Positions 37,855-54,552 of a DNA stretch of 64,000 bases are shown here, piece after piece. The DNA lies in the NCBI GenBank assembly GCA_020073525.1, contig JAIQFA010000012.1, positions 1-64,000 of the forward strand. The letters run 5' to 3'. Made by a program: the position numbers and the translations under genes. The DNA is from Terriglobia bacterium (lineage in GTDB: Bacteria; Acidobacteriota; Terriglobia; Terriglobales; Acidobacteriaceae). Below the pieces are notes generated by a model, which was given only the letters and a program-made list of their open reading frames with translations, was not told where the DNA came from and made no database searches. The first letter of the stretch is position 1; the number at the start of each line of letters is the position of its first letter.

Positions 37855-38080
37855 TTCGGCTGTAGTAAACCAGGGCCGGTGTGTTGCTTTCAGCGCTCTC
37901 ATCTCACGGCTGATCAACTTACGCGCGCTGAAAGTCAGGAAGGGCCGCCCCGTCTGGCGCCAGAGCCGGAACTTTTAATCTGCAGTTCATATTCCTGTTA
38001 TGAGTGCGCAACATGCGGGCAGTACCTCTACAGTGCTGGCTTCTTTCGATATAAAAAAGAGCCACACGGGGAGGGTGAAA

Positions 38081-41000
38081 ATGATTTTCGGAGTGCTTAA
38101 GAATTCCTCGCAGATCATGCGCTGGAATCGGATTTCTAAAATTTTCCGTCCGTTGATCGCCACTTTGGTCTGCGCAGGAATGGCGTTTGGACAATCCATC
38201 AATATGTCGAACTGGGGCACCGTTACCACTCCGGTGTACAACCAGTTGGAGAGCAACCCGTTCTACTCCAACGCGGAGATTCTCGCGGGTCCGAACAAGC
38301 TCGGCAGCTACTATGCCGGCGTGCTGCCCAACGGCAAGAAGGTTACGCCCGCAGGGCTCAGCATCCAGATCGGAATGAACCCGCTCGGCGTCGCCGTGAC
38401 ACCCGACGGTCAGTACGCGGTTACATCGAACGACGACGAACGCGAAGGCGGATTCGTTTCCTACCAGAGTCCCACCAACGTTGGCGGCTATTCGCTCACC
38501 GTTGTGAACACATCGACCTTTAGCGTGGTGTCGCAGTTGCATACATCGCAGAGATTCTTCATTGGACTGCAGATCAGCGGTCCACAGGGTGGGCCCTACA
38601 CGGTGTGGGCGGCAGGCGGGCCAGACAATGACGTGAAGTTGTTCTCGCTTTCGTCCGCGGGCGTGCTCACGTCGGGTACTCCCGCCAACATCGTCATTCC
38701 TCCCACACTGCCTGAAAACGCGGGATACGTCTCGAACTACATCGCCGGCGCGCCGCTGACCTCGTCAACCTCAACGCCTTCGGGCTTCAGCAAATCGGGC
38801 GCAGAAATCACCTTCCCAGCGGGAATCCAGCTCTCTCCTGACGGCAAGTATCTCTATGTGGCCTGCAATGGCGATCAGAGCGTCGCGATCATTGACACAA
38901 ATACGAAAGGAATTCTGAAGCAACTTCCTGCCGGCGCCTTCCCCTACGGGATCGCGGTCAACGCGGCGGGAGACCGCATCGCGGTTTCAAACTGGGGCAT
39001 TGACGAGTACAAGTTCGCCAATCCAACCTACGACCCCGACTCCGGTTTCCTCACGGCTCTAGGGACTACCGGTGCCAATGTGCCCGATGGTTTCTATCCT
39101 CCCGTCAACAACAAGACGGGTAAGTTTCCTCTGAGCTCTTCGGTTCACATTTATGCCGCCCAGGGCGGATTCGCAGGGCTGGCCACACCGAAGTACGGCA
39201 AGCATCTGGGGATGAATAACCTGACACTCACCGGCAACAATGCTATCGGAGATGTTCATCCTTCGGCGATGGCGGTAGTGAAGGGCGCGGACGGAACCGA
39301 CGTTCTTTTCATCGCCAAGACCAACGACGATCACTTGGCACGCTACAAAATGAAGACCGGTGCGGCTGCCGGCGGGGACTACGACTTGGGTGCAACCTTC
39401 GTGCCTTATCTCAACAACAAAAACCGGCAAATCACTTTGGCCAAGGGCACTTATCCCAACGCCATGGCAGTCTCGCCCGACAACACCAAGCTCTTCGTCG
39501 CGGAAGCCGGCATCAACTCGGTGGCCGTGCTCGATGTGACCGACCCGCTCAACCCGAATCTGCTCGGCCGCATTCCCACCGGTTGGTATCCCACGGGTCT
39601 GGCCGTCAGCCCGGATGGAAGCACGCTCTACATTGCCAACGCCAAAGGCGTCGGCGAAGACATCAACCCCAACGTTGACACCACTGGCGGCAGCGGCCAG
39701 ATTCCTCCGCCCAGCGGATTGGGTTCGGATTCCAGGGTGGACAGTAATTTCATCTTCGGCAGCTTGCAGCAGGTCAGCCTGGCTACAACGCCGTGGGACA
39801 ACACCACCGTGCAGGCGAACAACTTCACCGTGCAGAATTCGGTAGACACCTCGATCGTTCCGATGGGCGGGACGGCAGGCTCCACCCGCATCAAGACCGT
39901 GATCTTCATCGAGCACGAGAACAAGACATTCGACTCCATGCTCGGGGACTTGGGCTCGTACTTCGGAAACTTCGCGGGTACGACCTTCAACAATGTCGAT
40001 GGAACCCCCTACAGCAACGGACAATTCACGGGAGTTTCCTTCAACACGCAGGTGCTGGCGCAAGCCTTCGCGACCGGGGTCAACTACTACTCCGAATCCG
40101 AGGAAAGCGACGCTGGCCATCAGTTCTTAGCGTCCGGCACGGCCAGCGATTACACGGAAAAAACGCTGCTCGTGAAGACCGGTCGCGGCCTGCTGGTCAA
40201 CAAGAACTTCGAGCCCGAAGATTATCCGGAAAACGGGTACATCTTCAACAACCTGGCCCGCTGGAACAAATCGTTTAAAGATTACGGCGAGCTCATGCGC
40301 ATTGAAGGCACCGACACCGGCACGAGCGTGCCTACCACGATCAACGACCCGCTTAGCGGCAACCTGGGCTTCCCCACGCTGCTGGCTGACAACTTCACGG
40401 TGTCCAACTACCCCGTGGTCAATGCTGGCGATGTCAGCACTCAGACCCAGGGTCTTGGGCAGTCTTACTTCATGAAGCTGCCGATCCTTGGCGTTCTGGG
40501 AACGACCAACAAGAACGGCACTCCGCGCCTGGATCTGAACTATCCGGGCTACAACTTCAACATCTCCGACCAACGGCGGGCGCTCGAATTCATCAAGGAC
40601 TTCGACAGCATGGTGAATGCGGGGACGCTGCCTCAGTTCCTCTACATCTACCAGCCCAACGACCACACCGGCGGCGTGCAGGCGCCCAATGCCGGGTCGG
40701 TTGTGACCAACGGCCCGCTGCAGGAAGTCGGCGACGGCGACGTGGGTCTCGGCATGGTGGTGCAGCACATCATGAAGAGCCCGATCTACTACAACGCGCA
40801 AAAGAACACTGGCGCTGCCATCTTCATGACCTATGACGACGCACAGTCTTCACTCGATCACATTCATCCGCACCGTACGCCGATGATCGTAATCAGCCCG
40901 TTTGCCAAGCCCGGTTTCATTGCCACTCGTCACTACTCCACAGCTTCGATCGTGAAGACCGAAGACCTGCTGATGGGCTTGCCGGCGATGAACTACGGTG

Positions 41001-41338
41001 ACTTGTTTGCCACCGATTTGCGCGATATGTTCCAGTCCACCTACAACGGCATCACCGCTGACCAGCTCAACTTCAACCTCGACCCGACCATCACACCTTC
41101 GAAGGAAGGCAAGAGGATCTGGTCGCTGGTCAGCAAGCTGGACACCTCGGCTCCCGACAAGGACAGCCAGCGACTGGGCGTGCTCGTGCGACTCTCGATC
41201 GAGGCAGACCAACTGCACGATCAGGCCGCGAAGAGCAACACGCTCGAAAGCGCCGCTTACCAGAAACAGCAGAATGCACTGTACGATGAAGCTGAAAAAC
41301 TGGTGGATACCGCTGGTCCAGCCGACAACGACGATTAG
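38081..41338 (+). CDS. Large exported YVTN beta-propeller/phosphoesterase protein
   Basis: About 1085 residues from the ATG at 38081, where GGGAGGG gives a good ribosome-binding site; the frame is open 81 bases further upstream. A signal peptide ('PLIATLVCAGMAFGQ') is followed by a surface-type YVTN propeller ('QLSPDGKYLYVACNGDQSVA', 'AVSPDNTKLFVAEAGINSVA'). From about residue 610 comes an alkaline-phosphatase-superfamily phosphoesterase of the phospholipase C type ('IKTVIFIEHENKTFDSMLG', with Glu and Asn/Thr metal-site residues, later 'FMTYDDAQSSLDHIHPHRTP'). Such proteins are abundant in Acidobacteriota and may release phosphate from outside substrates. A strong terminator follows. Confidence 0.85.
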   Translation: MIFGVLKNSSQIMRWNRISKIFRPLIATLVCAGMAFGQSINMSNWGTVTTPVYNQLESNPFYSNAEILAGPNKLGSYYAGVLPNGKKVTPAGLSIQIGMNPLGVAVTPDGQYAVTSNDDEREGGFVSYQSPTNVGGYSLTVVNTSTFSVVSQLHTSQRFFIGLQISGPQGGPYTVWAAGGPDNDVKLFSLSSAGVLTSGTPANIVIPPTLPENAGYVSNYIAGAPLTSSTSTPSGFSKSGAEITFPAGIQLSPDGKYLYVACNGDQSVAIIDTNTKGILKQLPAGAFPYGIAVNAAGDRIAVSNWGIDEYKFANPTYDPDSGFLTALGTTGANVPDGFYPPVNNKTGKFPLSSSVHIYAAQGGFAGLATPKYGKHLGMNNLTLTGNNAIGDVHPSAMAVVKGADGTDVLFIAKTNDDHLARYKMKTGAAAGGDYDLGATFVPYLNNKNRQITLAKGTYPNAMAVSPDNTKLFVAEAGINSVAVLDVTDPLNPNLLGRIPTGWYPTGLAVSPDGSTLYIANAKGVGEDINPNVDTTGGSGQIPPPSGLGSDSRVDSNFIFGSLQQVSLATTPWDNTTVQANNFTVQNSVDTSIVPMGGTAGSTRIKTVIFIEHENKTFDSMLGDLGSYFGNFAGTTFNNVDGTPYSNGQFTGVSFNTQVLAQAFATGVNYYSESEESDAGHQFLASGTASDYTEKTLLVKTGRGLLVNKNFEPEDYPENGYIFNNLARWNKSFKDYGELMRIEGTDTGTSVPTTINDPLSGNLGFPTLLADNFTVSNYPVVNAGDVSTQTQGLGQSYFMKLPILGVLGTTNKNGTPRLDLNYPGYNFNISDQRRALEFIKDFDSMVNAGTLPQFLYIYQPNDHTGGVQAPNAGSVVTNGPLQEVGDGDVGLGMVVQHIMKSPIYYNAQKNTGAAIFMTYDDAQSSLDHIHPHRTPMIVISPFAKPGFIATRHYSTASIVKTEDLLMGLPAMNYGDLFATDLRDMFQSTYNGITADQLNFNLDPTITPSKEGKRIWSLVSKLDTSAPDKDSQRLGVLVRLSIEADQLHDQAAKSNTLESAAYQKQQNALYDEAEKLVDTAGPADNDD

Positions 41339-48078: not shown

Positions 48079-50619
48079 ATGCTGAATTACTCCGGGCCGT
48101 TCAAAGACCCCGTCATTCATTCCACTCATCCACATTCCGGTAGTCGTCGGAATCAGCTTTTGGCAGGGATCGCTCGACCGTTTCGCAGACTGCCTGAGCG
48201 TGTTTTAGCATGGATCCCACAGTCGGGCGACAACGCGCGCCTGGATCGTGGCTGGATCATCGCTAACCACAAGCTCGTTTCCTTCCACGCCGCCTTCCTG
48301 ACCTCATTGCTAAGTATTCCCCTCCTCGTGACATCGAGATTCGATGTCATGCGGCAGATGTTTCTCAGTATTGAGGTCGTGATCTCTTGCCTGATGTGGT
48401 ATGTGGCATGGCATTCGAACATCGCCATCCACGAGATGGGGCACTATTTGACGGCGGTCAAAACCAACAATCTGAGACCGGAGTTCGCAGGTCCCGCTGA
48501 GCAAAAACTGAAACAAGGCTGGATTGGCAGGTGGCTCTGGTACCTCGAGATGTTCGTGAAGATTCCATACGGAGCCTTCCCCGGAGTGCACAAGGAGTCA
48601 GGGAGCTTCCACCCCGGCGTGAAGACGCAGAACCTGGCCGTGTCGGCGGCCGGGCCGCGAGCGAGCAAGGTGTTCGCTCAAATCGCGTTCTTGCCGGGAA
48701 TCGTTCTGATCCTGCTTGGCCTGTACGCTACGTTGCCGGGGGTGGTTTACGCGGGAAGACTCCTCTTCACGGTTGGGGTTGTCGCCCTCTTCGACTTCCT
48801 GCTTTCGGACGCGGGGAAATATAAGGCGTTCCGGGAAAGACAGCGAGAGGCGGCAGCTAGAACGGCGGAGGTCAGGGCCGCGGAACCGGCTCATGACCTA
48901 CAAGACGCGCGTCAAGGCAAGCCCTCTGAGCTCCGGCGCAAGCTCCGGCTGCACCGGCTCCAGGAGCTGGAACTGCCGGACGGAAAGATTGTGTTCGCCC
49001 CATGGGAGTTCAGGAACTCCATTCAGGGAGGGCGTCACACCGAGGAGATGGGCGGGAACTTGAGCTTCCAGGAATTGATGTTCCTGCCGCTTACCGCCAA
49101 AGATTACATTGAGGCCCAACGGGTCATCAATATGCTGCAAACCAGAGCGATCCAGATCATCCAGGACACGGAAGGTCTGAATTTCGTGGGCATCGGCCTA
49201 GAGGGGGGCATCGTGGCCTCCTACGCCAGGGAAAAATGCGACTCGCTCCCGGAAGAGAGGGCACTAAGAGTCGCCGTCCAGGCCATCGAGGAATGCGGCT
49301 TTGTTCCCGACCGAGATGTTTGCATCGCGCTCGATCCAGCCGCCAGCGAACTCAGCAATGCTTACCGGGAGAAGACTGGGGAGAAGGAGTCGGTAGGCCA
49401 GTATCTCTTCTGGAGAGCCGAGGATCCGAAGGTCATGTCCACCGATGAAATGGTCGAGATGTACCTTCGCTGGGTCCAGAAATTTCCCATCGTTTCGCTG
49501 GAAGATCCCTTCGCGGAAGATGACTACGAAGGATGGAAGAAACTCATGAAGGCCCTCGACCAGGAGATCCTCATCATCGGGGACGACCTGGTTACGACCA
49601 AGGATTCCACCATTCAAAGATGCGCCGAGCAAGGGCTCATCAATACTGCCTTGATCAAGGCCAACCAGATCGGCACGCTGAGTGAAACTCTGCTGGCAAC
49701 TCGCATTGCGAAGAAGTTGGGGCTCGCCATAGTGGTGTCTCACCGATCCAAATCGCCTAACGAGGTCATGGAAGCCGATATCAGTTTCGGGGTCGGCGCC
49801 CTGGGCCTGAAGTGTGGCGGCGGGGCGAACACGGAGAGGCTGGTTAAATACGGAAGAATCGTCGAACTGATGGAGATGGCGAAGAAGGGTACAAAGATCA
49901 CCCGGATACTTGATCCCGATCTGATCATCGCCGACATCTCCGCTCACGAGGAACCGACGAACGCGGGCATCCCGACGGTTGGAGTGGTGATCATGCTCGA
50001 CAACGGCATGAAATTCTCCGCTGCCACGCCCTTGGGCGTCTCGGCTGGTACGGATGAGGCTATCCACTTGGTCGACAGCATCATCGAGGCCAACCCGCTC
50101 ACGCGGAAATTCCCGAACTATTTCGTCTTCAAGGAGAAAGAAAAAACCTATCGCTTCGCTGCCAACCTAAAGGCCGATGCGATCACCCAAGAAAATCGCG
50201 AACTGGCCGACCTCTGGATGAGGGCAAAGCGGTACGGCGGCAAAGGCTGTCTGAACGCCGTGGCCAACGTAACCGAAGTGGTGGCTCCCCGTTTCCTGGG
50301 ACAGAGAATCTCGTCTCTGGGCTCGCTCGCCGACATCGACCGCGAGCTTCTGCTGCTCGAACTGGATCTGGCCGTCAAGCGGGGCAAGATCGCTCCCAAC
50401 GCCTCCCCGGAGGAGAAGATCCAGATCATGCAGAGAAAAGCGAATCTCGGCATGAATGCGGTACTTTCCCTATCGCTTGCGCTCGGGCGCCTGGTGGCCG
50501 CCAGGGATGGGAAGGAACTTCCCGATGTGCTTCGGGAGATGGAGTCGACCATTGACCGTGATTATCTGTACGGGATCAAGGCAGCGGTGGAGGTGCCAGA
50601 GGAGGTCCACGCCGATTAG
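48079..50619 (+). CDS. Membrane HEMGH metalloprotease fused to a circularly permuted enolase
   Basis: 846 residues from the ATG at 48079 (TGGAG upstream; an open TTG start at 48001 is less likely). Residues 60-255: four to five membrane helices with HEMGH (118-122) and, in a later helix, 'FDFLLSDAGKYK' (Asp 244), as in site-2-type zinc proteases. Residues 298-600: the enolase TIM barrel, keeping active-site His 320, Glu 332 ('FQELMFLP'), Glu 375 ('GLEGG'), Asp 419 ('ALDPAASE'), Glu 475 ('SLEDP'), Asp 502/503, Lys 527 ('LIKANQIGTL'), 'SHRS' 555-557 and Lys 578. Residues 615-825: the enolase N-terminal domain ('PTVGVVIMLDNG', 'PLGVSAGTDEA', 'RYGGKGCLNAVANVTEVVAP', 'LGMNAVLSLSLALGR'), here placed after the barrel. 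Enolase converts 2-phosphoglycerate to PEP. Function of the fusion unknown; activity looks possible for both parts. Confidence 0.9.
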   Translation: MLNYSGPFKDPVIHSTHPHSGSRRNQLLAGIARPFRRLPERVLAWIPQSGDNARLDRGWIIANHKLVSFHAAFLTSLLSIPLLVTSRFDVMRQMFLSIEVVISCLMWYVAWHSNIAIHEMGHYLTAVKTNNLRPEFAGPAEQKLKQGWIGRWLWYLEMFVKIPYGAFPGVHKESGSFHPGVKTQNLAVSAAGPRASKVFAQIAFLPGIVLILLGLYATLPGVVYAGRLLFTVGVVALFDFLLSDAGKYKAFRERQREAAARTAEVRAAEPAHDLQDARQGKPSELRRKLRLHRLQELELPDGKIVFAPWEFRNSIQGGRHTEEMGGNLSFQELMFLPLTAKDYIEAQRVINMLQTRAIQIIQDTEGLNFVGIGLEGGIVASYAREKCDSLPEERALRVAVQAIEECGFVPDRDVCIALDPAASELSNAYREKTGEKESVGQYLFWRAEDPKVMSTDEMVEMYLRWVQKFPIVSLEDPFAEDDYEGWKKLMKALDQEILIIGDDLVTTKDSTIQRCAEQGLINTALIKANQIGTLSETLLATRIAKKLGLAIVVSHRSKSPNEVMEADISFGVGALGLKCGGGANTERLVKYGRIVELMEMAKKGTKITRILDPDLIIADISAHEEPTNAGIPTVGVVIMLDNGMKFSAATPLGVSAGTDEAIHLVDSIIEANPLTRKFPNYFVFKEKEKTYRFAANLKADAITQENRELADLWMRAKRYGGKGCLNAVANVTEVVAPRFLGQRISSLGSLADIDRELLLLELDLAVKRGKIAPNASPEEKIQIMQRKANLGMNAVLSLSLALGRLVAARDGKELPDVLREMESTIDRDYLYGIKAAVEVPEEVHAD

Positions 50620-53288
50620 GCGTCGTCCGGACCGGGCAATGGGAGGTTTTCTTCCCGGCAGATCTTCTCGAGCTGGCCGACAGACCAGACCGCGTTGAAG
50701 TCATAGAACACGCGATATGGCTGTTGGAGAAGTTCGAGCACTATCTTGGACTGGGGATCGCTCCAGTCTGGGAGGGACTCTTTTGCCTCCTCCAGCTTAA
50801 CGCCGCTGAGTTTCAGTGTAATGAGCGGTTGCACGTTACCTGGGCGAAGCGATAACTGTTCGAGCCCGCCCTTGAGAATCTGCTTACGCGCCAGGAGGAC
50901 TTTCCTCTCGCCTACTTTGTGCAGGACCTGCATATATTTCTCGAAGAGAACCCATTCATTCACCAGCAGTCCAATCTCCGATGTGGTAAAGCACTTCCAG
51001 AAAGTGACAGGATATTGCAGGCATAAAAACCTCCCCAGCATGAAGGCTCCCGCCTCGTAACCAGAGGTACGCTCACGAAAGCATTTGGCCAGAGCTTGCT
51101 TGAAGAACCTGATCTTCCGGTCCAAGGAAAGCATCTCGAAAACATTGCTTTGACCGAGGTGGTCGCCAATGTCACTCTTCAGAACCTCTTCCGTGTACAG
51201 TGCTTCCCGTTCGTCGAACCAGCTGTTCACCAGTTGCCTGGCTTCTTTCGATTCTCCGCGAAATTCGAAGTTCACTAGCCGGGTGACTTCGCTCAGGGTG
51301 GAAATCTGATCGACCTCGAGACCTCGAGTCAATTGCTGGTAGTAGCGGTAGGCATAGGCAATCGACTCGAACGCTTTCTTCTCCTGCTCATCCATCTCGA
51401 CAGGCTCTCCCTTCATATAGCGCAAGAGCCTGCCAGGCTTGAACTTTGCCTTGCCTTCGTAAAGCGTTCGTCGCCTCGAGGAGACCGTGATCCAATCCCC
51501 CTCTTTGATTTCCCTCCCGAAGGAATTCACCAGGCGTCCATCAGGTTGTAATGTCACGCCGTTTTTCTCGAGGCTCAGTAGCGCGGGGATGCCGAGGCTC
51601 TGACATATCGTGACTACGTGCACAGCAGCCGAGGTCAGACTCAGGATTGCATCCATCTCGCGCATCACCACAGTGTCGGTGGGCAAGAAGGTCTTTTTAC
51701 ACAGACACACCATCTCCCCTTGGCTCTTCGCTCCCAAAGCGGCGTCGCCCGTGAAGTAGACGCGCGCCGACACTGCCGACCTGGGCAGAACCGCAATCCC
51801 TGAACAGAAGCTGTTGAGGAGACTGAAATCGTCCTGGTCGATGGTGTCGCTCGTCAACTGCTTGATGTGGTAGGGCCGAATGAGTTCGGTCACGCGCTGC
51901 CGTGATATGGTCCCCGACTTGTGCATGTCCACAATGGAGGTAATTGCAGCACGCCCCGCCATCCCTGTCTGATTCAGTTGCAAGAGCGCGAACAACTGAT
52001 ACCTTTCGGTAGCTTCGACTGCGAACTCGATGGTGACAGGAGACTCAAACTCCCTCTCAAGGTCGCCAAGGTGTGGAACAAAATGATGAACGGCAGGAAA
52101 CGTGTCCTTGATTGCTTCTCGATCCCCGAACGAAGTTGATTGGATCTCGGCTGTTCCCGTCATCATCTCTTCGCCGAAAATGTTGTGAGCGGTTTGTAGT
52201 TCTATACCGGAACCCGTTTGCGTATGGCGGCTGGAGATGACTCCGGCATAGGCATTTTCGTGCCGGACCGTGCAAATCATCTTCTGCAAGATGAGACTGG
52301 GATAATGTTCCGTGCCTCGACACAATGTGAGCACCAGGTCGAGGTTTTCTTCAAAGTGCTTGTAGGCCAGTCTCGCGAAAAAGCTGGCCTGCAAGAAGGC
52401 GTCTTCAATAAGCCGTCGGTCAGTTTTCCGGATGATCTCGGACAGCTGATCCACCAGTCGCTCGACCTCATCAGGACGCAAGTCAGATTTGACGGTCTTG
52501 AGAATCGCCACGTGCTCGTCATGGTGGAGCGCCTGACACAGGTTTCTGAGGTTGTTCAGAAACATTTTGCGCGCGGCCACTGAGCCATACATTCTCTCCA
52601 AGCTGGGCAACGTGCTCTCTGTCACGCCGACGTTGAGATAAGTGTCCATGACTCCAGGAATGTAGTGAGCCGTGGCGCAGCGAATTGCGAACACGAGAGG
52701 CCTTTTGCAGTCTCCCAGGTTCTGCATGGTGAGGATTTCGAGTTGCTTGAGGGCATCCGCGACGTGCTCCTCCAAATGCTGGGCACGCTCGGCATAAGCG
52801 TGAGAGGTGAGTACGACGAAGTCCGGGACGGGATAGCTGAGTTTGGTTAGCTGCAGGAGGACGAATGCCTTTTGACTTATGCTTTGTTCCGAGTGAGGCT
52901 CACAACTCGTAGAAGGAACGACAAACCTGCTTTCGGAGGGCCGAACTCGCTCCACTCCCAAACGTTGTTCTTGCGCCTCCGATGAAAGCTTCTTGGCAGC
53001 TTCCGTGTCACCTCGACGGGCATTCAGAACCAGCGCAAGGTGCGCTTTCGCTTTTTCAAAATCATCGTCACAAAGAGAAGGAATATCGACCTCGCTAACC
53101 GCGACGCTGCTGGTTTGGCCATCGTCGAGTTCGAAATCAACCACGGGCGGGGAGTATCCTGGGCTGTTCGGAACTGCGTTTTCTATCTTGCGAGAATGCA
53201 GTTCCATCCTGGACAGGAGGCTGCGCTGGTTAGCATAGTTGCCGCGAATCCTGAAGTCGCGAATTTCTATCCCTGTGACGGCTTCCAT
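50616..53288 (-). CDS. Pyruvate phosphate dikinase-like protein without the PEP/pyruvate TIM barrel
   Basis: 890 residues. After about 130 variable residues comes a PPDK-type ATP-grasp: 'PLVFAIRCATAHYIPGVMDT' (nucleotide-site Arg, PG.MDT), 'GSGIELQTAHNIFGEEMMTG', 'PVTIEFAVEATERYQLFALL'. Next is the swivelling phospho-His domain, where 'VHVVTICQSLGIPALLS' places His 557 nine residues before the conserved G.P, as in PPDK and PEP synthase, though the preceding Ser and following Arg are changed. 'GREIKEGDWITVSS' ends that domain. The C-terminal 250 residues are helical and do not resemble the PEP-binding barrel. It may phosphorylate another acceptor, as glucan dikinases or rifampin phosphotransferase do. 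Its stop overlaps the stop of the enolase fusion (tail to tail). Confidence 0.75.
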   Translation of the reverse strand: MEAVTGIEIRDFRIRGNYANQRSLLSRMELHSRKIENAVPNSPGYSPPVVDFELDDGQTSSVAVSEVDIPSLCDDDFEKAKAHLALVLNARRGDTEAAKKLSSEAQEQRLGVERVRPSESRFVVPSTSCEPHSEQSISQKAFVLLQLTKLSYPVPDFVVLTSHAYAERAQHLEEHVADALKQLEILTMQNLGDCKRPLVFAIRCATAHYIPGVMDTYLNVGVTESTLPSLERMYGSVAARKMFLNNLRNLCQALHHDEHVAILKTVKSDLRPDEVERLVDQLSEIIRKTDRRLIEDAFLQASFFARLAYKHFEENLDLVLTLCRGTEHYPSLILQKMICTVRHENAYAGVISSRHTQTGSGIELQTAHNIFGEEMMTGTAEIQSTSFGDREAIKDTFPAVHHFVPHLGDLEREFESPVTIEFAVEATERYQLFALLQLNQTGMAGRAAITSIVDMHKSGTISRQRVTELIRPYHIKQLTSDTIDQDDFSLLNSFCSGIAVLPRSAVSARVYFTGDAALGAKSQGEMVCLCKKTFLPTDTVVMREMDAILSLTSAAVHVVTICQSLGIPALLSLEKNGVTLQPDGRLVNSFGREIKEGDWITVSSRRRTLYEGKAKFKPGRLLRYMKGEPVEMDEQEKKAFESIAYAYRYYQQLTRGLEVDQISTLSEVTRLVNFEFRGESKEARQLVNSWFDEREALYTEEVLKSDIGDHLGQSNVFEMLSLDRKIRFFKQALAKCFRERTSGYEAGAFMLGRFLCLQYPVTFWKCFTTSEIGLLVNEWVLFEKYMQVLHKVGERKVLLARKQILKGGLEQLSLRPGNVQPLITLKLSGVKLEEAKESLPDWSDPQSKIVLELLQQPYRVFYDFNAVWSVGQLEKICREENLPLPGPDDA

Positions 53289-53330
53289 AGTGGCGTCATC
53301 CTCTCCGAACAGACCGATCTCGCAAGCGCC

Positions 53331-53816
53331 TTACCGTTTGTAACCGATATTGCGCAGCAGGTCGTGCCGCCAAGCGACGTCTGTCGGTCCCTCCACGCCT
53401 TTTGGCGCACTGCCGTCGATAACACCCAAAACCCCCTGACCCTGGGCGCTTTGGGCGACAATGATCTCGACTGGGTTGGCGGTCGCACAAAAAATCGCGC
53501 AAACCTCGGGCACATTCCGGATCGCGCTCAGTACGTTGATGGGATACGCGTTCTGGAGGACGAGCACAAACGTATGACCCGAACCGAGTGCTTGGGCGTT
53601 GCGTACGGCAATTTCCCGCAGCGCCTGGTCATTTCCTTCCGACCGCGTCAGGCATGCCCCGGAGCTTTCATTGAACGCCAACCCAAACTTGGCTTGCGGC
53701 ACGGTGGTGGCGACCGCTTCGTAAAGGTCTTCCACGGTCTTGATGAAGTGCGACTGGCCGACGATGATGTTGGCGTCGGCCGGAAAGTCCATACGAATCG
53801 ACTTCATTTCGAGCAT
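53331..53816 (-). CDS. Adenosine-specific kinase-like protein (PF04008 type)
   Basis: 161 residues, the normal length of the family. 'MDFPADANIIVGQSHFIKTV', 'AKFGLAFNESSGACLTRSEG' and 'GHTFVLVLQNAYPINVLSAI' match the compact 'adenosine-specific kinase' proteins first studied in Pyrobaculum, which bind adenosine and nucleotides. The 'ESSG..L.R..GND..L' segment is the conserved pocket. It would form AMP from adenosine, but activity is poorly documented. It lies 36 bases after the EF-P paralogue and 42 bases before the PPDK-like gene, so the three probably form an operon. Confidence 0.8.
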   Translation of the reverse strand: MLEMKSIRMDFPADANIIVGQSHFIKTVEDLYEAVATTVPQAKFGLAFNESSGACLTRSEGNDQALREIAVRNAQALGSGHTFVLVLQNAYPINVLSAIRNVPEVCAIFCATANPVEIIVAQSAQGQGVLGVIDGSAPKGVEGPTDVAWRHDLLRNIGYKR

Positions 53817-53852
53817 AGGTCCCCTCCGATTCGCGCTCGACTGAGCAAGGTG

Positions 53853-54434
53853 TTATGCGATACGTTTTCGGTCCGGGTGGGCGCGCTCCACGTACTGGCC
53901 GGTGCGCAGATTCACTCGCACGATTTCCCCGGGGGCAATGAAGAGCGGAACGCGGATCGCGAGACCATTGTCGAGTCTGGCTTCCTTCCAGGCGCTGTCT
54001 TGCTGGGAACGTGTAGCCGGCGCCGTGTCCGCAATCCTGGCCTCCATGATGTCAGGCAGGACGGCGCTGATGGGGACACCTTCGAAGAACTCCACCGGCA
54101 CTTCCATCCCGGATTGGAGAAACTGCTCTGCTGGCCCTAGAATCTCGCCGGATATTTCAATCTGTTCGTAGGTGTAGGGGTTCATAAACGTACAAGTGCT
54201 CCCCTGGCGAAACAGGAATTCCAGGAGTTGCCGTTCCACCTGCAACTCTTCCACTCGTTCCTGCGGGCGGAGATGCGGCTCCCATACGCGGCCGCTACGC
54301 ACATTACTCAGCTTGGCCTTGACGACACCGCCCAGCTTCGCCGCCCCGGCCCGGCTCTCCACTTCGAGAACTCTGTAAATCTCGCCCTCCATGCGGAGGA
54401 CCATTCCTGCCTTCAATTCGGACGCGACCAGCAT
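53853..54434 (-). CDS. Elongation factor P paralogue
   Basis: 193 residues from the ATG at 54434, chosen for its GGGAGGA site; the open frame runs to 54572. KOW-like domain I ('MLVASELKAGMVLRMEGEIY') followed by two OB domains ('FRQGSTCTFMNPYTYEQIEI', 'RVPLFIAPGEIVRVNLRTGQ') is the EF-P layout. The tip Lys that is modified in EF-P appears kept ('RAGAAKLGGVVKAKL'), but the surrounding PGKG-type loop is changed, so this is probably a specialised paralogue and not the housekeeping EF-P. A role in translating proline-rich stretches is only inferred. Confidence 0.82.
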   Translation of the reverse strand: MLVASELKAGMVLRMEGEIYRVLEVESRAGAAKLGGVVKAKLSNVRSGRVWEPHLRPQERVEELQVERQLLEFLFRQGSTCTFMNPYTYEQIEISGEILGPAEQFLQSGMEVPVEFFEGVPISAVLPDIMEARIADTAPATRSQQDSAWKEARLDNGLAIRVPLFIAPGEIVRVNLRTGQYVERAHPDRKRIA

Positions 54435-54552
54435 AGGAATCCTCCCACTAAACGACAGGCCCCACACTTTGGATGAATGTACGGAATGCCAGCGGATCGA
54501 GGGGCTTGGGCACCTCCTCTTGAGCGACCCGGCGGCCGCCGCAACACACCGA

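What the first reader, a model, noticed from the sequence alone, without database searches (positions are those of the whole stretch)
48079..50619. Membrane metalloprotease fused to a circularly permuted enolase
Seen: a HEMGH zinc-protease motif within several membrane helices is followed by the enolase TIM barrel, and then, after it, by the domain that is N-terminal in all enolases I know ('PLGVSAGTDEA', 'RYGGKGCLNAVANVTEVVAP'). The barrel keeps every catalytic and metal-binding position that I can align by motif, so selection for enolase chemistry, or at least the fold, seems to persist. Swapped domain order plus a membrane protease anchor would be a new architecture: it could place PEP formation at the membrane, or the enolase could be a sensor released by cleavage.
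Basis: partly seen in the sequence, partly recalled or inferred. Interest (0 to 1): 0.95.

Follow-up and report, generated by a model that had tools for sequence, protein, structure and literature searches.

The report
Permuted enolase fused to membrane protease
A soil bacterium encodes a protein in which a membrane-embedded protease is joined to the sugar-burning enzyme enolase with its two halves in swapped order, kept together with a partner gene in several bacterial groups, which hints at an undescribed link between metabolism and the cell membrane.

Summary
Window 48079-50619 (+) encodes 846 aa: an M50-like membrane metalloprotease core (HEMGH), the enolase TIM barrel, then the enolase N-domain. 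It is not an assembly error: 21 relatives (70-95% identical) share the architecture in Acidobacteria, 'Deltaproteobacteria' and Elusimicrobia assemblies, under purifying selection. All 12 enolase active-site positions tested are kept in 18 of 18 aligned type A rows. In distant relatives both are one polypeptide of 2051-2397 aa. A third type includes a paralogue with both the protease motif and the enolase active site lost. Of 32 carrier genomes examined 27 also have a full ordinary enolase. Seven paper searches returned nothing on it (listings only). Function is inferred: most likely an intramembrane protease coupled to PEP/2-phosphoglycerate through an enolase that may still be active; a membrane-anchored PEP enzyme is nearly as likely.

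The parts
48079..50619 (+). M50-like protease / permuted enolase fusion gene, 846 aa
   Evidence: open frame; Pfam order; 21 relatives; dN/dS 0.03-0.18 by domain against five relatives
48241..48948 (+). M50-like membrane core, residues 55-290, four hydrophobic windows (66-84, 94-112, 198-216, 228-246)
   Evidence: Pfam M50 match in 18 of 18 family members at E<=0.1, best 6e-6; hydropathy
48430..48444 (+). HEMGH zinc-protease motif, residues 118-122
   Evidence: H, E, H invariant in 18 of 18 type A rows and in a 12-row alignment of types A, B and C; lost in paralogue L041
48808..48810 (+). Asp 244, candidate third zinc ligand
   Evidence: invariant in 12 of 12 rows of types A, B, C; role inferred from M50 proteins in general (recalled)
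49000..49875 (+). enolase TIM barrel (Enolase_C, residues 308-599)
   Evidence: catalytic residues
49924..50538 (+). enolase N-domain placed after the barrel (residues about 616-820), with the loop serine S655 at 50041-50043
   Evidence: profile match to canonical positions 4-134, E 5.1e-18; serine kept 18/18 A, 8/8 B, 2/3 C
50077..50217 (+). insertion inside the N-domain (residues about 667-713), present in types A and B, absent from canonical enolases and from type C L039
   Evidence: N-domain alignment
50616..53288 (-). PPDK-like partner gene, 890 aa, convergent, stop codons overlapping by 4 bases
   Evidence: TIGR01828 115.7 bits over residues 136-619; convergent neighbour in 20 of 21 relatives
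51969..52901 (-). partner: ATP-grasp-like region (residues 130-440)
   Evidence: related by profile to the C-terminal part of type B fusions, prob. 95.9%, E 5.8e-9
51618..51620 (-). partner: invariant His 557, in the column of the PPDK phosphohistidine but in a changed motif (SAAxHVV, not TSHAA)
   Evidence: 15 of 15 rows
50619..51395 (-). partner: helical C-terminal region of unknown kind, where PPDK has its PEP/pyruvate barrel
   Evidence: no TIGR01828 match beyond residue 619; helical in a model of moderate confidence

Best explanation
SHOWN: one gene encodes an M50-like intramembrane metalloprotease core followed by an enolase with swapped domain order; it is a conserved family that keeps both active-site motifs and travels with a PPDK-like protein, as a convergent neighbour (type A, this window), an adjacent same-strand gene (L037) or a fused C-terminal part (type B). 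INFERRED: it is a metabolite-gated site-2-type protease. The cytosolic enolase module binds, and probably still interconverts, 2-phosphoglycerate and PEP; the PPDK-like part binds adenine nucleotide; their state opens or closes the intramembrane protease, which cuts an unknown membrane protein. Carbon and energy status would thus be coupled to membrane proteolysis, in the place where SpoIVFB and mjS2P carry CBS domains. Protease substrate, direction of control, topology and nucleotide binding are not shown.
For: HExxH and the later Asp are kept across types A, B and C (12 of 12 rows) together with all enolase active-site residues (18/18 A, 8/8 B, 2/3 C), and in the one paralogue that lost the enolase residues the protease Glu is lost as well, so the two activities appear linked. 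Every permuted enolase found at E<=1e-75 in 396 Acidobacteriota genomes lies at an M50-fusion place (9 of 9). 27 of 32 carriers have a full ordinary enolase, so a second one is not needed for glycolysis there. Consistent changes beside the active site (DEGG to L/IEGG, SHRSGE to SHRSKS) suggest altered specificity or rate. The type A partner keeps K22-, R92-, E323- and Q335-like residues but has T/A for D321 and N/D for R337 (15 of 15), which could fit binding more than turnover. CBS domains in the same C-terminal place in SpoIVFB/mjS2P: passages of PMC11486902.
Against: Complete retention of the catalytic residues, with the lowest dN/dS in the barrel (0.03-0.06), is what a working enzyme would show; a pure sensor need not keep them. 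Type B keeps TSHAA (4 of 4 rows that reach it) and the type A partner keeps a histidine in the same column (15 of 15), so phosphoryl transfer is not excluded. The M50 match is weak (below the Pfam cut-off) and a profile of the M50 part found no PDB M50 protein. PMC11486902 calls the role of the CBS domains enigmatic and says they were dispensable in one in vitro assay. No model of usable quality. No gene for a protease substrate is conserved nearby.
Confidence: 0.33

Rival explanations
1. Membrane-anchored PEP enzyme: a working enolase held at the membrane to make (or drain) PEP locally for a membrane-bound consumer, with the PPDK-like protein as channelling or regulatory partner; the M50 part is an anchor or a self-processing device.
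For: All 12 tested active-site positions kept; barrel is the most constrained part; the partner is related to a PEP-making enzyme and is fused to it in type B.
Against: An anchor would not need an invariant HExxH and Asp; most carriers have an ordinary enolase (27 of 32); no PEP consumer is conserved nearby; the partner lacks the PEP/pyruvate barrel.
Confidence: 0.3
2. New phosphoryl-transfer enzyme: the ATP-grasp and His domains phosphorylate an acceptor held in or near the enolase active site (for example glycerate to 2-phosphoglycerate, then dehydration to PEP). The enolase barrel takes the place of the PEP/pyruvate barrel that PPDK has.
For: Type B ends right after the His domain, so the only TIM barrel in the polypeptide is the enolase one; type B keeps TSHAA, K22-, R92-, E323-, Q335- and R337-like residues; the type A partner keeps a histidine in the same column.
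Against: In type B D321 is E, and in type A D321 and R337 are both replaced; the acceptor is pure conjecture; it leaves the protease unexplained.
Confidence: 0.18
3. Assembly or annotation artefact: separate protease and enolase genes joined in error.
For: The window's genome and nearly all named relatives are draft or metagenome-assembled (record titles).
Against: 21 relatives in separate assemblies with the same order and differing flanks; dN/dS far below 1 in all three parts; types B and C repeat the order.
Confidence: 0.01

Closest known systems
Enolase (phosphopyruvate hydratase; Pfam Enolase_N + Enolase_C)
   Same: Both domains, all 12 active-site positions tested; 35-36% identity to the genome's own enolase
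   Different: Domain order swapped; membrane protease in front; insertion in the N-domain; LDSRG motif lost; DEGG to LEGG and SHRSGE to SHRSKS; below the eno equivalog cut-off (237 of 300 bits)
Site-2-type intramembrane metalloproteases (M50; SpoIVFB, mjS2P with C-terminal CBS domains)
   Same: HExxH beside a membrane helix, a later Asp, a C-terminal soluble regulatory-sized part (CBS comparison from passages of PMC11486902)
   Different: Weak Pfam match, no PDB sequence match; an enolase instead of CBS domains
Pyruvate phosphate dikinase (PPDK)
   Same: Partner aligns with the ATP-grasp and His domains (TIGR01828 positions 17-510)
   Different: No PEP/pyruvate barrel; two ATP-site residues replaced and the His motif changed in type A; extra unassigned domains. 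Of 9 carrier genomes examined, 7 have a separate PPDK over the family cut-off
Rifampin phosphotransferase and glucan, water dikinase (recalled, not compared)
   Same: ATP-grasp plus phosphohistidine domain without a PEP/pyruvate barrel, phosphorylating another acceptor
   Different: No protease, no enolase; no sequence comparison was made here

Membership tests
Enolase (phosphopyruvate hydratase) | Enolase_C and Enolase_N domains | tested here: met
   187.9 and 53.7 bits, both over Pfam cut-offs
Enolase (phosphopyruvate hydratase) | N-domain before the barrel | tested here: not met
   order reversed
Enolase (phosphopyruvate hydratase) | catalytic, metal and phosphate residues | tested here: met
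   12 positions in 18/18 type A and 8/8 type B rows
Enolase (phosphopyruvate hydratase) | NCBIfam eno equivalog cut-off (300 bits) | tested here: not met
   237.3 bits
Enolase (phosphopyruvate hydratase) | 2-PG dehydration activity | not testable with these tools
   needs an assay
Peptidase M50 (site-2 protease) | Pfam M50 gathering score | tested here: not met
   21.9 of 27.2 bits for the window protein; 18 of 18 members match at E<=0.1
Peptidase M50 (site-2 protease) | HExxH zinc motif in or beside a membrane helix | tested here: met
Peptidase M50 (site-2 protease) | Asp third ligand (LDG-type motif) | tested here: inconclusive
   D239 and D244 invariant, but the motif is not LDG
Peptidase M50 (site-2 protease) | M50 fold | tested here: inconclusive
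   model too poor; no PDB sequence match
Pyruvate phosphate dikinase (partner gene) | equivalog cut-off (843 bits) and C-terminal PEP/pyruvate barrel | tested here: not met
   115.7 bits, match ends at profile position 510 of 865
Pyruvate phosphate dikinase (partner gene) | phosphohistidine in a TSHAA motif | tested here: inconclusive
   histidine in the same column in 15 of 15 rows, same spacing to the next Gly, but motif changed
Pyruvate phosphate dikinase (partner gene) | ATP-site residues K22, R92, D321, E323, Q335, R337 (numbers recalled) | tested here: not met
   four kept; D321 is T (A in L018) and R337 is N (D in L013) in 15 rows
Anti-phage defence systems in PADLOC | match to a PADLOC model | tested here: not met
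   0 families for either protein at E<=0.1

The most novel reading that the evidence does not exclude
An undescribed class of membrane machine in which a naturally circularly permuted enolase and a PPDK-like nucleotide module control an intramembrane metalloprotease, so that the cell's 2-PG/PEP and adenylate state is read out as regulated proteolysis.
Probability: 0.33. Interest if true: 0.93.

Novelty: new variant of a known kind. Interest (0 to 1): 0.82.

Why it matters
Enolase is one of the most conserved enzymes; in the papers I could search I found no natural domain-order permutant of it and no fusion to an intramembrane protease. If the enolase part controls the protease, this is a testable case of a glycolytic intermediate governing regulated intramembrane proteolysis. 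If it is only an enzyme, it is still a natural experiment in how an enolase works with reversed domains and without the otherwise invariant LDSRG motif. Either way, the type B fusion gives a firm lead to a new ATP-grasp/enolase partnership.

Tried and rejected
Rejected or dropped. (1) 'The permuted enolase is the only enolase of G265': that genome (100% complete by estimate) has no canonical enolase match, but it also lacks gpmI, its GH57 gene lies near the end of contig C3, and that contig ends inside the small ORF that in the relative G121 sits between GH57 and eno (eno, gpmI and GH57 are neighbours in G121, G073 and the window's genome). An assembly gap is the simpler reading. (2) 'The partner has lost the phosphohistidine': I first read the changed motif so; the alignment puts the invariant histidine in the same column. 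Mended, and the odds of the two enzyme readings raised slightly for it. (3) Common origin of the extra domains of the type A partner and the type B linker: hhalign probability 0.3% and 0.2%. (4) Phage defence, virus or plasmid carriage: none of 17 pattern matches in viral contigs encodes a relative (two peptides only); in plasmids no record covers 80% of the query, and the best 10 listed cover at most 38%. Phage records were not searched. (5) Structures: fusion model poor, its fold search not used; partner model moderate (mean pLDDT 68.5, pTM 0.49) and not searched. (6) A match in G080 is a short fragment with stops, not pursued.

Rows left out. Alignment A1: window + 17 of 18 relatives (L020 truncated, left out). 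A2: 15 rows; L004 left out though its gene is there, L010 and L012 truncated, L020 absent. A5: L019 left out (internal deletion). A10: 11 of the 15. Canonical profile A12: 16 of 17 loci given to the script. Tree: 27 of 29 canonical loci tried could be cut out; C_L041 has an extreme branch. Enolase family scan scored at most 3 candidates a genome.

Full report
OBSERVATION. The ORF at 48079-50619 (+) is 846 aa. Pfam places Peptidase_M50 (115-279, weak), Enolase_C (308-599, 3.3e-55) and Enolase_N (692-774, 3.1e-14) in that order. In the PDB sequence search the best chain, 4a3r, matches query 308-599 with its barrel and query 717-775 with its own residues 57-110 (E 0.0036); its first residues match query 617-666 only weakly (E 20). 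Profile comparison with 16 canonical enolases of carrier genomes gives canonical 141-410 for the barrel (E 4.2e-49) and canonical 4-134 for the C-terminal part (E 5.1e-18). The domain order is swapped.

RELATIVES. A scan of the genome collection (84,980 species) with six short peptides gave 19 loci. Eighteen are relatives at 70-95% identity: by record title 14 Terriglobia/Acidobacteria, 2 'Deltaproteobacteria', 2 Elusimicrobia; one of them, L020, is cut off inside the barrel. The nineteenth (L021, 37%, no M50 part matched) I take for an ordinary enolase. Three more close relatives came from genomes G265, G073 and G121 (79-82% identical), making 21. G088 has the same coordinates and contig length as L013 and is not counted again. 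As a profile, the M50 part found 11 of 396 sampled Acidobacteriota genomes, the window's own included: 5 type A, 4 type B, 2 type C. In the phylum of an Elusimicrobia carrier it found 1 of 198, and that one is the carrier itself. In the phylum of a 'Deltaproteobacteria' carrier it found 6 of 282, two of them already known and four new, all four type B. So the family is rare and patchy. A profile of the permuted enolase alone at E<=1e-75 found 9 of 396 Acidobacteriota genomes, all at M50-fusion places; type C falls below that threshold.

THREE TYPES. Type A (window): M50 core + enolase, open frames of about 810-900 aa. Type B: L035, L036, L038 and L053 are single open frames of 2078, 2184, 2051 and 2397 aa. 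Pfam on two of them (L035, L053) gives Enolase_C, Enolase_N, PPDK_N and PEP-utilizers in that order, then the end; L053 also shows a weak HD-domain match. In L037 the parts are two adjacent same-strand ORFs, 957 and at least 1098 aa. L054-L056 are cut by contig ends. Type C: L039 and L040 (open frames of 867 and 866 aa) and L041, a paralogue with HMMGH and with all 12 enolase positions replaced (its alignment is uncertain), followed in frame by the start of another M50 copy. In the barrel tree the 27 canonical enolases form one side of a branch (100/100), as do type A (97/96) and type B (100/100); type C is not resolved because C_L041 is an extreme branch. One origin of the permutation is compatible with this, not proved.

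PARTNER. Compared with the 18 relatives (at most 8 kb on each side, several much less), the neighbour 50616-53288 (-) is found beside the gene in 17; the only other widely shared ORF, 53040-54140 (7 of 18), lies partly antisense to it and is probably not a gene; no other window ORF is found in more than 2 of 18. With the three extra genomes it is 20 of 21, always convergent; stop-to-stop distances run from -43 to 493 bases, with one of 2143, and seven are -4, as in the window. In the 21st, L020, the contig ends inside the enolase. The partner is PPDK-like over residues 136-619, and its ATP-grasp part is related by profile to the C-terminal part of type B (95.9%, E 5.8e-9). In type A the K22-, R92-, E323- and Q335-like residues are kept in 15 of 15 rows, D321 is T (A in L018) and R337 is N (D in L013); the histidine column is H in 15 of 15 with the same spacing to the next Gly, but TSHAA has become (T/A)SAAxHVV. 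In type B TSHAA is intact in the 4 of 5 rows that reach it, D321 is E, and the others are kept. PPDK numbering is recalled. The type B fusion is the strongest evidence that the convergent neighbour in type A is a functional partner.

SELECTION AND ACTIVE SITES. dN/dS against five relatives is 0.06-0.18 (M50 core), 0.03-0.06 (barrel) and 0.05-0.12 (N-domain). The 11 barrel residues and the loop serine are kept in 18/18 A, 8/8 B and 2/3 C rows. Of 73 barrel columns invariant in the canonical set 44 are kept in A, B and C together, and 14 of 34 in the N-domain (C_L041 left out); consistent changes include DEGG to L/IEGG, SHRSGE to SHRSKS and loss of LDSRG. It should work like an enolase, but substrate or rate may differ. 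Window versus L016 and L018 (other phyla): permuted barrels 80 and 81% identical, canonical barrels of the same genomes 58 and 52%; all seven pairs compared go the same way, which suggests horizontal transfer or stronger constraint.

GENOMES. The window's genome has its own canonical enolase and a PPDK over the cut-off. Of 32 carriers, 27 have a full canonical enolase (384 bits or more), G090 and G727 show a canonical-type fragment, and G265, G396 and G890 show none (G088 and G401 give identical places and are probably one genome, so 26 of 31). The absence in G265 is best explained by a contig end; G396 and G890 were not followed further.

MECHANISM. I commit, at 0.33, to a metabolite-gated intramembrane protease. 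Shown: architecture, partner, conservation of both active-site motifs, joint loss in one paralogue. Inferred: cytosolic location of the enolase, gating, PEP/2-PG as the signal, nucleotide binding by the partner. SpoIVFB and mjS2P carry C-terminal CBS domains in the same place; the paper calls their role enigmatic (passages of PMC11486902). Close rival (0.30): a membrane-anchored PEP enzyme. Third (0.18): a new phosphoryl-transfer enzyme. These odds were shifted slightly towards the enzyme readings once one search showed the histidine column kept.

LITERATURE. Seven searches returned 11, 5, 155 (10 listed), 1, 0, 0 and 0 papers; I saw titles and abstract openings only, and none of those listed is about this architecture. 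The library holds open-licence papers only, so this is weak evidence of absence. I therefore rate it a new variant of a known kind: known parts, in an order and combination I did not find described.

Noticed in passing
L041 (G090:C59) 2-2959 -: Paralogue in which the protease motif (HMMGH) and the enolase active-site positions are lost together, followed in frame by the start of a second M50-like copy.
   Followed up: partly
L039 6050-7492 -: In a type C genome an ordinary enolase gene lies tail-to-tail with the M50/permuted-enolase gene.
   Followed up: no
L053 3544-10734 -: The 2397 aa type B protein has a weak HD-domain match between the enolase and PPDK-like parts.
   Followed up: no
G265 contig C3, end (L110): Canonical eno and gpmI are missing beside a contig end in a genome rated 100% complete: a caution for presence/absence calls.
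   Followed up: yes
window 53853-54467 -: Elongation factor P-like protein scoring below the efp equivalog cut-off (164.1 of 185.8 bits), beside an adenosine-specific kinase family gene (PF04008) at 53331-53816 -.
   Followed up: no
window 38000-41335 +: A 1112 aa protein with matches to both lactonase/NHL-type propeller and phosphoesterase families.
   Followed up: no
L019 8001-10391 +: The relative has an internal in-frame deletion of about 49 residues in the enolase N-domain; real or an assembly fault.
   Followed up: no
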